Shown here in pieces: positions 8,598-64,000 of a stretch of DNA of 64,000 bases. The stretch comes from Streptomyces pseudovenezuelae (GTDB lineage: Bacteria > Actinomycetota > Actinomycetes > Streptomycetales > Streptomycetaceae). The notes beneath the pieces were generated by a model. That model worked only from the letters and a program-made list of their open reading frames with translations. It searched no databases and had not been told where the DNA came from. The stretch is from positions 506,532 through 570,531 of the forward strand of contig NZ_KQ948147.1 in assembly GCF_001513955.1 (NCBI RefSeq), written 5' to 3'. Both the position numbers and the translations under genes were made by a program. Position 1 is the stretch's first letter. Every line of letters begins with the position of its first letter.

Positions 8598-9952
8598 GTC
8601 GAGGGACCGGCCTGTGGTGGTCTGCTGTTCGATGAGACGAGCCAGCGTCGGCGGCAGGAGCACGGCGTTCTCGTCGAAGGTGAAGTAGGCGCCGCGCTCG
8701 TCCTGGTGGAAACGGCCGGTCGTCAGGTGGACGATGCGGATGAGGGGCAGGCCGTAGGGCCGGATCAAGGCGCCGACGATCCGAAGTTCCAGAGGCAGTG
8801 AGGCGTCCGTCAGGCCTCGACGGGAGCTGCTCCTGGTGGTCCTCGTCGTCAAGGAAGAGCACCGGCATGCTCATAGGGCGCCCGGGTTACTCCAGGTTCT
8901 GGGTCAGGCCGCAGGTCGGATCTCGTTGCCGTCGCCGGTGGCGGCGTTGAGCGAGCAACGTCCGCGGTCTGCGCGTCGGCGGGCGTCACGGATGACGAAC
9001 CACTCGGCGAAGGGCCGATTGATCTCTGTGTGCGGCGGGTGTGCACCGGAAGGTCGCGGACGTGGCCCGTGGCCGCGTCCTGGGGCAGGTCATCGAGGAG
9101 TGCGTGGGTGATTTCCCCGTGGCCGGCGGACAGCGTGGCCAGGAGGCGGGCGCTCGGGCTGCGGCGGAGCTACGCCAGAACATACCGGGGACTAGGGGCT
9201 GTGGCGGGGGCTTCGGCAAGCGGAGCGAGCGCGGGGGTGACCTGTCCGTCCTCGTCGGCGAGGAGATTGTGGACACGGTCGCTGGCCCCACATTCCAGGC
9301 AGCGTCCATCACCGAGGATGTCGCCCGGGGTGCCGCATCGGCGGCAGGAGAAAACGATGTCGGTGCCGCAGCCTGGGCCGCAGGTTTTGCCGCCGTCGTC
9401 GTTGAGGCCGCCCCGTACGCGGGTGACACCGCAGAGGGAGCAGGGCTCTGGGTTGCGTCGGCGCCTGGAGTAGCAGGGGGAGCAAAAGGGGCCGATCGCC
9501 AGGTGGTGACTGCGGCCTTCTTGCCGCGTCTGCAGCCGACGCATCGACGCATCGACGCATCGACCGGGGGCGCAGAGAGCGGCTCCTCCAACTCTCTTGC
9601 TGTGGGCGCCAGCACGGAAGCGTCCGCAGACGATGCATACCCCTTCGAAGGTGTAACAGCGATGGCAGACGCCGGGTTCACCGTCCTTCCCACGCTTGGC
9701 GAGCTGCGTCAGTTGACGGCGGACGCACTCACGCTCGGGGTAGCCGGCGCAGTTGCTGTCGCGCGGGCACGCCCAGCCCGTCGGAGGGTTCACGCAGGCT
9801 CGCAGGCAGTTCGCCTCGGGCTTCCGGCACTTCGAGCACCGCGAAGGTACGGACCGGTGACTCGCCCTGGGGCGCGCCTGGACGCCGCGAGACGGCCCGC
9901 GCGATCGACAGGCGATTCGCGCAGACCCATTGACCGCCGGTGATCCATCCAT
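8580..9952 (-). pseudogene. zinc-ribbon, recombinase-like protein, broken
   Basis: The minus strand encodes a Cys-rich protein. CSKCRKPEANC, VCHRCYTFEGVCIVCG, FCSPCYSRRRRNPEPCSLCG and FSCRRCGTPGDILGDGRCLEC are successive zinc-ribbon knuckles. The frame hits a TAG at 9170-9172, exactly where a Trp would be expected (YVLA then LRRSPSARLLATLSAG), then resumes with GEITHALLDDLPQDAATGHV. It later shifts frame to PFAEWFVIRDARRRADRGRC, and after a deletion continues as LFLDDEDHQEQL and LTDASLPLELRIVGALI, ending prematurely at 8580. The layout resembles a family I recall as common in Streptomyces, with N-terminal zinc ribbons and a C-terminal tyrosine-recombinase-like domain; that assignment is from memory. 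The gene is clearly inactivated. Confidence 0.65.
9825..9893. repeat. right copy of the 69-bp imperfect direct repeat
   Basis: 59/69 identical to 6667-6735, same orientation. Here it lies inside the 5' part of the zinc-ribbon pseudogene, encoding SHRSVPSRCSKCR on the minus strand. Confidence 0.7.
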
Positions 9953-9963
9953 CTAGCCTCCGT

Positions 9964-10075: not shown

Positions 10076-11413
10076 ATGCCGCTCGTCGTGGTCGGGATCA
10101 GCGTTCTCGTCCTGCTCTTTCTGATGACGAAGCTGAGACTGAACGGCTTCGCCGCCCTCCTCCTGGTCGCCGTGGGCGTCGCCCTCGTACAGGGCATCGG
10201 CCTGGAGGACATCCCCGACGTCCTCTCCGAGGGGATCGGGGACCAGATCGGCGACACGATGCTCACCATCGGGCTCGGCGCCATGGTCGGCCGTGTGATG
10301 GGGGACTCCGGCGCCGCCCAACGCATCGCCGGCAAGCTCCTCGACGTGTGCGGCCCGCGCTGGGTGCAGGTCGCCATGGTGCTGTCCGCGATGCTCATCG
10401 GCGTGACCATGTTCTACGAGGTCGCCTTCGTGATTATCGTGCCGGTCGCCTTCACCCTCGTCCGGGTCACCCGGGCCAACCTGCTCTGGGTGGGCCTCCC
10501 GATGTCGATCGCCCTGTCCACCATGCACAGCTTCCTGCCGCCGCACCCGGGCCCCACGGCCGTCGCGGCCACCTTCCACGCCTCCGTCGGACTCACCCTG
10601 TTCTACGGCCTGTTCATCGCGGTCCCGGTCGGCGCGTTCATCGCCCTCCTCTGGCCGCGCCTGCCGTTCATCCGCCGTATGAACCCCGAGATCCCCAAGG
10701 GCCTGGTCAGTGAGCGGGTCTTCGAGGAGGAGGAGATGCCCGGCATGGGCTGGTCGCTGGCGGTGGCCCTGCTGCCCGTCGTGCTGATCGCCGGTGCCGC
10801 GGTGACCGACCTGGCCACCTCGGGGGACAGCGCAGGACTGCACTTCGTCGCGTTCATCGGCTCCGCGCCCATCGCCCTGCTGCTCACCCTGCTCGTCGCC
10901 GTGTGGGTGTTCGGGCCGCGGATGGGGCGCAGCCTCGCGGAGGTCAGCACCTCGTGCAAGGAGGCCGCCCAGGCCATGGCGATGATCCTGCTGGTCATCG
11001 GAGCGGGCGGCGCCTTCAAGAACGTCCTGGTCGAGGGCGGCATATCCGACTACATCAAGGACGCGACCGACAGCTGGTCCGTCTCCCCGCTCATCCTGGG
11101 CTGGCTGATCGCGGCCATCCTCCGTATCGCCCTCGGCTCCGCGACCGTCGCCGTCGTCACCGCCTCCGGAGTGGCGCTGCCGCTGCTAGCGGGCGGCGGG
11201 GTCCACGCCGAAGTCATGGTGCTCGCGGTCTCCTGCGGGTCGATCGCCTTCTCGCACGTCAACGACCCGGGATTCTGGATGTTCAAGGAGTACTTCAACC
11301 TGTCCGTCATCGACGCGATCAAGGCACGCACCACCTATACGACGGTCCTCGCGATCCTGGGCCTCGGCGGTGTACTGATCCTGGAACAGGTGCTGGACAC
11401 CCTCAACGTCTGA
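10076..11413 (+). CDS. GntP-family permease (gluconate/glucarate type)
   Basis: A 445-residue proton-coupled sugar-acid symporter of the GntP family, with about 12-14 hydrophobic segments from VVVGISVLVLLFLMTKLRL to the C-terminal VLAILGLGGVLILEQVLD. Family signatures include GAMVGRVMGDSGAAQRIAG, MPLVV at the start, the LPPHPGPTAVAATF loop and SCGSIAFSHVNDPGFWMFKE near the end. AAGGGAG at 10061-10067 supports the ATG at 10076. It is followed after 41 bp by glucarate dehydratase, so the likely cargo is D-glucarate or a related aldarate/gluconate, imported for that enzyme. The family assignment is firm, the substrate inferred. Confidence 0.9.
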   Translation: MPLVVVGISVLVLLFLMTKLRLNGFAALLLVAVGVALVQGIGLEDIPDVLSEGIGDQIGDTMLTIGLGAMVGRVMGDSGAAQRIAGKLLDVCGPRWVQVAMVLSAMLIGVTMFYEVAFVIIVPVAFTLVRVTRANLLWVGLPMSIALSTMHSFLPPHPGPTAVAATFHASVGLTLFYGLFIAVPVGAFIALLWPRLPFIRRMNPEIPKGLVSERVFEEEEMPGMGWSLAVALLPVVLIAGAAVTDLATSGDSAGLHFVAFIGSAPIALLLTLLVAVWVFGPRMGRSLAEVSTSCKEAAQAMAMILLVIGAGGAFKNVLVEGGISDYIKDATDSWSVSPLILGWLIAAILRIALGSATVAVVTASGVALPLLAGGGVHAEVMVLAVSCGSIAFSHVNDPGFWMFKEYFNLSVIDAIKARTTYTTVLAILGLGGVLILEQVLDTLNV

Positions 11414-62922: not shown

Positions 62923-63084
62923 CACCGCGGCAAATCCTGTGAAGAACCCGGTGGATTGCGTGACCGTGTTGCGACGCCGGTGAAGCCGGGAACCGAACCG
63001 CCCGGTGAACCGGGGTCGGCCGACTGGCCGTGTCCATGCCCGGCGTGCTTCCATCCGGTGTCCCCACCTCCTCGAGGATTGCTC

Positions 63085-63303
63085 ATGCGAAAGGAACCGC
63101 GCGCCATGAACGTCGCCCCCCACATCGAGGCCGCCGAGCTCACCGACGCCGACCTGGACCAGGTCTCCGGCGGTGTCGCCGCCGCGACCGCCGCCGGTCT
63201 CCACCTCCAGGTGGCGCACCTCGAGGTCTGCGCCGACGCCGGTGCCTTCGTCTCCGCCGAGGGTGTCGCGCTCGGCGTCAACGCCCACGTCGGCGTGAAC
63301 TGA
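63085..63303 (+). CDS. small double-glycine-leader peptide, putative RiPP or bacteriocin precursor
   Basis: A 72-residue peptide. ATG 63085 is preceded by GAGGA at 63074-63078 with six bases spacing; a second in-frame ATG lies seven codons on. The first 30 residues form an acidic leader ending ELTDADLDQVSGG, which matches the LxxxDLxxVxGG signature of double-glycine leaders cleaved by C39-type peptidases. The 42-residue core is Ala/Val/Gly-rich with three His, one Cys, one Thr and one Ser, so it is not a typical lanthipeptide. It is followed by a strong terminator, and a cyclase-family gene comes next. No processing enzyme or transporter is in view, as the window ends soon after. Function unknown. 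Confidence 0.68.
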   Translation: MRKEPRAMNVAPHIEAAELTDADLDQVSGGVAAATAAGLHLQVAHLEVCADAGAFVSAEGVALGVNAHVGVN

Positions 63304-63316
63304 CCGAACACCCGCC

Positions 63317-63348
63317 ACGGGCCCCGGATCCTGTGATCCGGGGCCCGT
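63317..63348 (+). terminator. strong terminator after the small peptide gene
   Basis: ACGGGCCCCGGATC (63317-63330) and GATCCGGGGCCCGT (63335-63348) form a perfect 14-bp stem with a four-base loop, 13 bp after the stop codon. It isolates the peptide transcript from the cyclase gene. Confidence 0.85.
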
Positions 63349-63452: not shown

Positions 63453-64000
63453 ATGCACGAGCAGCCGTCCCTTCTCGCCGCGCTGGTGTCCGCCCTGCGG
63501 GCCGGCTCGATCGAGGTCGTCGATCTCACCTCGCCGTTGTCCTCCTCCACACCGGTGATCCAGCTTCCGCCGCAGTTCGGCCAGACGGCGGTCTTCGAGC
63601 TGGAGCAGATCAGCCGGTACGACGACCGTGGACCGGCCTGGTACTGGAACAATTTCCGCAGCGGAGAGCACACCGGCACCCACTTCGACGCCCCGAACCA
63701 CTGGGTGACCGGAAAGGACCTCGCCGACGTGGCGTCCGTGCCGGCGCAGCGGCTGATCGCCCCCGCCGCCGTCCTGGACTTCACCGCCGAGGCGGCCAAG
63801 GACCCCGACTTCCTCGTGGAGGTGGACCACGTCAGGATCTGGGAGGAACACAACGGGCCGCTGCCGGACGGGGGCTGGCTGTTCCTGCGCACCGGCTGGG
63901 ACGCCCGCTCGCACTCCCAGGAGGCCTTTCTCAACGCCGACGAGAACGGCCCGCACACACCCGGCCTGTCCCCGGAGTGCGCCCGCTGGGTCGCCGAGGA
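63453..64000 (+). CDS. cyclase-family protein, 5' part (kynurenine formamidase-like)
   Basis: The window ends inside this gene, so only about 182 residues are visible. It starts at ATG 63453 with CAGGAGG at 63441-63447. The metal-binding signature is GEHTGTHFDAPNHWV, the HxGTHxDxPxH motif of the cyclase/kynurenine formamidase superfamily, at about residues 72-86. Early residues EVVDLTSPLSSSTPVIQLPP also fit. Members hydrolyse N-formylkynurenine or isatin, or cyclise polyketide-type products; the role here is not known. It is separated from the peptide gene by a strong terminator, so co-function is only a positional guess. Confidence 0.85.
   Translation, partial: MHEQPSLLAALVSALRAGSIEVVDLTSPLSSSTPVIQLPPQFGQTAVFELEQISRYDDRGPAWYWNNFRSGEHTGTHFDAPNHWVTGKDLADVASVPAQRLIAPAAVLDFTAEAAKDPDFLVEVDHVRIWEEHNGPLPDGGWLFLRTGWDARSHSQEAFLNADENGPHTPGLSPECARWVAE

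What the first reader, a model, noticed from the sequence alone, without database searches (positions are those of the whole stretch)
63085..63303. Orphan double-glycine-leader peptide with a His/Val/Ala-rich core
A clear ribosome site, an acidic leader ending in ELTDADLDQVSGG and a perfect 14-bp terminator mark a genuine small gene. The 42-residue core (one Cys, three His, very few Ser/Thr) does not fit lanthipeptides, lasso peptides or thiopeptides that I know. It could be a bacteriocin-like or metal-binding peptide, or a precursor of an undescribed RiPP class; the following cyclase-family gene is a possible modifier.
Basis: partly seen in the sequence, partly recalled or inferred. Interest (0 to 1): 0.62.

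Follow-up and report, generated by a model that had tools for sequence, protein, structure and literature searches.

The report
Unlinked peptide served by shared exporter
A small Streptomyces gene that looked like an orphan makes a short peptide that probably shares its on-switch and its cut-and-export machine with a sister peptide elsewhere in the genome, which points to a scattered peptide regulon in this genus.

Summary
The small gene is real, but its start is very likely 63106, not 63085: a 65-aa precursor with a 23-aa double-glycine leader and a 42-aa hydrophobic core. It is orphan only in position. The genome has one C39 peptidase, in an NHLM-type exporter operon on another contig that starts with a second peptide bearing the same leader and a different core. 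Both genes share a two-part upstream element, GTGAAG, about 107 bp, then TGG-N15/16-CGTGCTTTGATCC. A pattern of this architecture, relaxed at the two bases where the window departs, hits only these two genes in 9.64 Mb. In the genus, leader peptides occur in 195 of 214 exporter-positive and 4 of 77 exporter-negative genomes. In a class sample of 296 genomes all 20 matches fell in this genus. Nothing supports the downstream 'cyclase' gene as a modifier. The exporter-linked peptide resembles S. coelicolor SCO0753 by description; in ten text searches I saw no report of unlinked copies or the shared element. Best reading: a peptide cleaved and secreted in trans, probably unmodified, bacteriocin-like or surface-active. 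Cleavage, export and activity are untested.

The parts
62939..62944 (+). upstream element GTGAAG, 107 bp before TGC of the promoter-like motif
   Evidence: GTG[AG]AG lies at 104-109 bp in 33 of 37 motif-bearing family genes
62980..62985 (+). second GTGAAG copy, 66 bp before TGC of the motif; a copy at 64-66 bp occurs in 17 of 30 unlinked and 0 of 7 exporter-linked genes
63025..63056 (+). promoter-like element TGG-N16-CGTGCTTCCATCC (family consensus CGTGCTTTGATCC; 2 mismatches here)
   Evidence: 13-mer with at most 2 mismatches in 36 of 39 family genes, 0.1 expected in resampled sequence; TGG at 15 or 16 nt in 36 of 37
63088..63096 (+). Shine-Dalgarno CGAAAGGAA for the start at 63106
   Evidence: GAAGGG or GAAAGG at this place in 37 of 39 family genes
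63106..63303 (+). precursor peptide gene, 65 aa plus stop (likely true start; 63085 is an upstream in-frame ATG)
63106..63174 (+). double-glycine leader MNVAPHIEAAELTDADLDQVSGG
   Evidence: 57-65% identical to five exporter-linked leaders, the cores 26-36%; predicted helix 14-29 in a low-confidence model
63175..63300 (+). 42-residue core, GRAVY 0.99, pI 5.2; holds the S-x-E-G stretch common among unlinked cores
63317..63348 (+). 14-bp perfect inverted repeat, terminator-like
63453..63998 (+). downstream PF04199 cyclase-family gene (runs off the window); not considered part of the system
   Evidence: pairs with a TPP-enzyme gene; cluster confined to the window's syntenic group

Best explanation
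The gene encodes an unlinked substrate of the genome's single NHLM-type peptide exporter. It is transcribed from a two-part promoter shared with the exporter operon. The 65-aa precursor keeps the leader of the exporter-linked paralog, so the C39 domain of the exporter (G000:C3:214994) should cut after Gly-Gly and the ABC/HlyD machine should secrete the 42-aa hydrophobic core, probably unmodified, as a bacteriocin-like or hyphal-surface peptide. Shown: gene, leader, single C39, shared upstream element, co-occurrence. Inferred: cleavage, export, that the element is a promoter, lack of modification, activity.
For: One C39 peptidase in G000, inside TIGR03796 (1019.6 bits, cut-off 853.3), beside TIGR03797 (895.4, cut-off 709.4) and a HlyD-like protein (TIGR03794, 147.1, under its cut-off of 156.2), directly after a peptide with the same leader. 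A profile search of G000 finds just these two members below E=0.2. Unlinked versus linked: leaders 70%, cores 30% identical on average (70 pairs). Peptides in 195 of 214 exporter-positive and 4 of 77 negative genomes; two or more in 92 of 214 versus 1 of 77. Element: 36 of 39 genes within 2 mismatches, 0.1 expected; present in 57 of 71 exporter-positive and 0 of 30 negative genomes; GTGAAG-N90..118-TGCTTNNATC hits only the two peptide genes in G000, control 0. Frame and sequence kept, dN/dS 0.56-0.65.
Against: No expression, cleavage or export data for this peptide. No immunity gene was recognised next to it, and no family model reaches its cut-off. The window's 13-mer departs at two positions, as in its close orthologs, and the pattern was relaxed there with knowledge of the window. 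19 of 214 exporter-positive genomes show no peptide at E<=1e-4, and 4 of 77 negative ones do (one 79% complete, three with sub-cut-off exporter matches and a C39 domain); with the window peptide as query G082 has a marginal match (E 0.0085) and no C39. Part of the co-occurrence is trivial, as one peptide sits in the exporter operon. 23 of 225 C39-bearing genomes have more than one C39 (counted by eye), one of them G201 with a window ortholog. The upstream element could be inherited with a duplicated gene, although conservation is confined to the elements.
Confidence: 0.8

Rival explanations
1. Precursor of a modified RiPP: an unlinked or adjacent enzyme modifies the core before export.
For: Double-glycine leaders also occur in modified RiPPs; weak below-cut-off hits of 4 of 29 members to an ATP-grasp target family; a Ser in an S-x-E/Q-G-like stretch is kept in 22 of 25 unlinked rows and 0 of 4 linked rows of the alignment; Cys42 is invariant in six close orthologs.
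Against: No enzyme family recurs beside members of different groups; those that recur (acyltransferase in four loci, radical-SAM MqnC-like in four) stay within related loci. The exporter-linked core has neither that Ser nor a Cys. Cyclase gene behind a strong hairpin and paired with a TPP enzyme.
Confidence: 0.13
2. Hydrophobic surface or morphogenic peptide acting on the producer's own hyphae rather than a toxin for rivals.
For: The S. coelicolor peptide of the same layout, SCO0753, is the most induced gene in a dispersed-growth sco5282 mutant and its authors compare it with hyphal coat proteins (PMC6629963, passages); core GRAVY 0.99; no immunity gene recognised.
Against: Patchy sets of unlinked cores that differ between species resemble bacteriocin repertoires; no phenotype known.
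Confidence: 0.35
3. A peptide signal (pheromone) exported to regulate the producer or its kin.
For: Double-glycine export is also used by peptide pheromones (recalled); one of 29 members has a weak below-cut-off match to pheromone VP1; shared upstream element.
Against: Cores of about 40-56 residues are long for a pheromone (lengths of pheromones recalled); receptors were not searched for.
Confidence: 0.15
4. Decaying relic of a duplicated bacteriocin gene without function.
For: Two substitutions in the 13-mer; no neighbours in common with the exporter operon in the clustering.
Against: Full-length frame, Shine-Dalgarno and upstream elements kept in the nine syntenic copies; dN/dS 0.56-0.65 with a core no more variable than the leader by pN.
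Confidence: 0.05

Closest known systems
SCO0753-SCO0756 of Streptomyces coelicolor (predicted bacteriocin operon; PMC6629963, passages seen)
   Same: Hydrophobic 77-aa peptide followed by a HlyD homolog and two ABC transporter genes; the exporter operon here has the same layout, with an exopolyphosphatase-like gene (TIGR03706, below cut-off) a few kb on, as SCO0757 is annotated there.
   Different: The passages seen describe only the linked peptide; the window gene lies on another contig with its own core. Likeness rests on layout and description; the SCO sequences were not compared.
NHLP/N11P precursors with the TIGR03794/03796/03797 exporter (Haft et al. 2010, PMC2887384, passages seen)
   Same: Same exporter families; paralogous precursors with shared leaders and variable cores, some encoded far from export genes.
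   Different: 23-aa leader instead of Gly-Gly at about position 70-83, and no match to the nitrile-hydratase-type leader model at cut-off; no modification genes recognised in the stretches examined; defined shared upstream element; all class-sample matches in one genus.
Class II double-glycine bacteriocins (cerein 7B/lactobin A, TIGR03949)
   Same: Short acidic GG leader, hydrophobic Ala/Val/Gly-rich core, C39 exporter.
   Different: Scores below cut-off (17.2 of 21.5 bits); no recognised immunity gene; exporter not linked.

Membership tests
Double-glycine (C39-processed) peptides | acidic leader ending in Gly-Gly | tested here: met
   D14, L17, G22 and G23 invariant in 29 of 29 aligned members
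Double-glycine (C39-processed) peptides | C39 peptidase/ABC exporter in the genome | tested here: met
   one C39 in G000, in TIGR03796
Double-glycine (C39-processed) peptides | cleavage after Gly-Gly and export | not testable with these tools
   needs biochemistry or secretome
Class IIb bacteriocin TIGR03949 | score over the curated cut-off | tested here: not met
   17.2 versus 21.5 bits
Class II bacteriocins | cognate immunity gene next to the peptide | tested here: inconclusive
   nearest neighbours are a LacI regulator and a cyclase-TPP pair; no search aimed at immunity proteins was made
Class II bacteriocins | antibacterial activity | not testable with these tools
   needs an assay
NHLP precursors (TIGR03793) | nitrile-hydratase-related long leader | tested here: not met
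   12.8 versus 50.9 bits, 23-aa leader
NHLM exporter substrates | leader shared with a peptide encoded in the exporter operon | tested here: met
   61% leader identity to the linked peptide of the same genome, 57-65% to five linked peptides
Modified RiPPs (lanthipeptide, graspetide, other) | modifying enzyme linked to the precursor | tested here: not met
   no enzyme family shared by different groups among the neighbours clustered; unlinked enzymes were not searched for
Modified RiPPs (lanthipeptide, graspetide, other) | conserved modifiable core residues | tested here: inconclusive
   one Ser in 22 of 25 unlinked rows, 0 of 4 linked rows; no core column reaches 90%

The most novel reading that the evidence does not exclude
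Streptomyces carry a genus-specific peptide regulon: one household NHLM exporter serves species-specific sets of scattered peptide genes, tied together only by a common leader and a dedicated two-part promoter. The upstream element sits mainly at 105-109 bp, with a few genuine cases near 95 and 117-119, about one helical turn away, which would fit a looping or multi-site activator not yet described. The unlinked cores, with their S-x-E-G stretch, may form a peptide class of their own.
Probability: 0.45. Interest if true: 0.72.

Novelty: new variant of a known kind. Interest (0 to 1): 0.58.

Why it matters
The SCO0753-type cluster is treated in the papers seen as a single-peptide bacteriocin locus. 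If the reading holds, many Streptomyces secrete further, species-specific peptides from genes that cluster-based mining would tend to miss because no exporter or enzyme is nearby. The leader and the upstream element give a simple way to find them and to hunt for the regulator that controls them.

Tried and rejected
Pfam, NCBIfam, PDB-sequence and Rfam searches gave no match to the peptide or its upstream region at a curated cut-off. AlphaFold2 on six close orthologs gave a leader helix (14-29) and a core of low confidence (mean pLDDT 60.6), so no fold search was run. The cyclase gene as modifier was rejected on synteny. L042 (a Thermomicrobiales hit, 46% over residues 18-72) was set aside without further study. 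L079 and L080 were missed by the leader script and are not in the 39-gene set.

Motif details. Three of 39 genes fail at 2 mismatches (L077 with 3; the two L076 genes with 4-5). I first took the TGG spacing as fixed at 16 nt; it is 16 in 18, 15 in 18 and absent in 1 of 37 genes, so the N16 searches undercount genes of the 15-nt kind. At 3 mismatches the own-genome search equals its control (27 versus 25); of the four hits with at most 2 mismatches, two precede the peptide genes and two precede no leader peptide. One search gave 72 hits in 57 of 101 genomes against 3 for the reversed control; 30 of the 72 were looked at: 25 precede a leader peptide by script, L116 and L137 by reading, L119 by the coordinates; L111 and L130 do not. 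The script found 0 through a faulty expression and was redone.

Spacing details. Of 139 hits (control 3), 126 lie at 105-109 bp, ten at 116-119, three at 90-95, none between. By coordinates, five of the ten are second GTGAAG copies where another lies at 108 (G052, G053, G072, G103, G168), two lie away from peptides (G024, G141), three look genuine (G030, G049, G157); of the three short ones only G131 precedes a peptide; one hit at 109 (G141) also lies away from peptides. In the 39-gene set L051, L052 and L056 have 95 and L063 has 117. On finding the shared Ser I raised the modified-RiPP rival from 0.10 to 0.13.

The literature search for the motif letters gave only unrelated-looking papers (listing). 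The sigma factor or activator was not identified; a likeness of some regions to direct repeats bound by OmpR-type regulators is recalled, not tested.

Full report
What is there. The window lies in a 9.64-Mb genome. Genomes labelled 'same genus' coincide with named Streptomyces contigs (for example G201:C523 and NZ_LJBR01000057.1, both 54,436 bp), so the genus is taken as Streptomyces. The reported frame exists, but its start is most likely 63106. The Shine-Dalgarno CGAAAGGAA ends 9 nt before that ATG; GAAGGG or GAAAGG stands in this place in 37 of 39 family genes collected by script, the window's included, and two syntenic copies lack the ATG at 63085. The precursor is 65 aa: leader MNVAPHIEAAELTDADLDQVSGG and a 42-aa core. 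A perfect 14-bp hairpin follows. The frame is intact in nine syntenic copies, with dN/dS 0.56 in the seven closest and 0.65 in all nine; the core is no more variable than the leader by pN.

Where its machinery is. G000 has one C39 peptidase. It is the N-terminal domain of an NHLM-type exporter protein (TIGR03796, over cut-off), next to TIGR03797 (over cut-off) and a HlyD-like protein whose best match, TIGR03794, is just under its cut-off. Immediately upstream is a 71-aa peptide with leader MNSTPQVETVEISDADLDNVSGG and a different hydrophobic core. A profile of 29 members finds two family members in G000, this one and the window gene, the next matches being at E 0.2 and 0.3. Exporter and window gene lie on different contigs; in G141 both lie on one 10.5-Mb contig at 0.94 and 9.58 Mb, in G140 at 9.30 and 1.34 Mb of one contig. 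Leaders of unlinked and linked peptides are 70% identical on average, cores 30% (14 unlinked by 5 linked).

Genus-wide pattern. Of 291 genus genomes, 214 have TIGR03796 over cut-off. The peptide profile (E<=1e-4) matches 195 of these and 4 of the 77 others. Of the four, G001 is 79% complete, and G119, G180 and G279 have exporter matches above the background yet below cut-off and a C39 domain. Two or more members occur in 92 of 214 versus 1 of 77; some of these may be tandem rather than scattered, as in G233. With the window peptide as query (E<=0.01) the figures are 165 of 214 and 3 of 77. C39 domains occur in 225 of 291 genomes, in 202 of them in one copy by my count. In a class-wide sample, 20 of 296 genomes match, all in this genus, 1 of 114 genera. 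One linked peptide in the exporter operon makes part of this association trivial.

Shared control. Upstream of the peptide genes, linked and unlinked, lies CGTGCTTTGATCC: at most 2 mismatches in 36 of 39 against a mean of 0.1 in resampled sequence. TGG precedes it by 15 nt in 18, 16 nt in 18 and is absent in 1 of 37 genes. In 22 representatives the columns above 0.6 bits are the TGG region and the first 12 bases of the motif. With the 16-nt form and at most one mismatch, 72 hits fall in 57 of 101 genus genomes, against 3 for the reversed control; these are 57 of 71 exporter-positive and 0 of 30 exporter-negative genomes. Of 30 hits looked at, 28 precede a leader peptide. A second element, GTG[AG]AG, lies 104-109 bp before TGC in 33 of 37 motif-bearing genes. 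In 199 genomes the exact two-part pattern gave 139 hits (control 3), 126 of them at 105-109 bp and 96 at exactly 108; hits fall in 107 genomes, of which one lacks an exporter over cut-off (G119). The genuine departures known to me (95 bp in L051, L052, L056 and G131; 117-119 bp in L063, which is G049, and in G157 and G030) are about one helical turn off. Contact between proteins across a loop is a suggestion from few cases. In G000 a pattern relaxed at the window's two divergent bases hits two places, the exporter operon and the window gene, with no control hit.

The unlinked genes as a group. Of the 25 unlinked rows of the alignment, 22 share a Ser in a stretch mostly of the form S-x-E/Q-G; the four linked rows lack it. 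A second GTG[AG]AG at 64-66 bp is found in 17 of 30 unlinked and 0 of 7 linked genes. This hints at a common origin and role of the unlinked peptides.

What it is not, as far as tested. The PF04199 gene is behind the hairpin, overlaps a TPP-enzyme gene downstream, and its cluster is confined to the window's syntenic group. Among six neighbours on each side of 40 loci I saw no enzyme family that spans different groups, though not all recurring clusters were identified; a DUF5753/HTH regulator family is near seven loci, an acyltransferase near four related loci, a radical-SAM (CofH/MqnC-like) protein near four. So an unmodified product is likeliest, not shown. No Pfam or NCBIfam match found for the 29 members was reported over its cut-off for the window peptide, and the others are weak (best E 0.00012).

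Prior knowledge. PMC6629963 (passages) describes SCO0753, a hydrophobic 77-aa peptide before a HlyD homolog and two ABC genes, conserved in many Streptomyces; it was the most overexpressed gene in the sco5282-D125G strain and nearly silent in the null mutant. PMC5733086 (passages) calls it a gene of a bacteriocin cluster. PMC2887384 (passages) defined the exporter families and noted precursors distant from modification and export genes. PMC5882110, PMC9739842 and PMC12323332 were seen in passages without bearing on the peptide. In ten text searches I saw no title or abstract describing unlinked copies or the shared element; other papers were seen as listings only, and most subscription journals are not held.

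Conclusion. A real, unlinked peptide gene, tied by leader and upstream element to the resident NHLM exporter: a new variant of a known kind. Export in trans is strongly suggested; the biological activity stays open.

Noticed in passing
L076 (G233:C4) 9726-9953 and 10359-10592, minus: Two tandem leader peptides with slightly shorter leaders, without the CGTGCTTTGATCC element and without the usual Shine-Dalgarno.
   Followed up: no
L044 7534-8883, minus (same cluster near L073 and L077): Alpha-lytic-type serine protease with prodomain (PF02983, PF00089) on the opposite strand before the exporter operon; its cluster recurs at two other exporter loci.
   Followed up: partly
L059, L066, L069, L071, L079, L080 (and L078, L081 in part): Unlinked peptide genes in a conserved neighbourhood that includes a Tad (Flp pilus assembly-like) protein and, near some, a type IV leader peptidase; several neighbours have no Pfam match.
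   Followed up: partly
unlinked cores, window residues 50-53 of the 65-aa precursor (SAEG): S-x-E/Q-G-like stretch with Ser in 22 of 25 unlinked rows and in none of 4 linked rows of the alignment.
   Followed up: partly
L116 and L137: Variant leaders beginning MRND..ETRE behind the same upstream element with one mismatch (TTTCATC).
   Followed up: no
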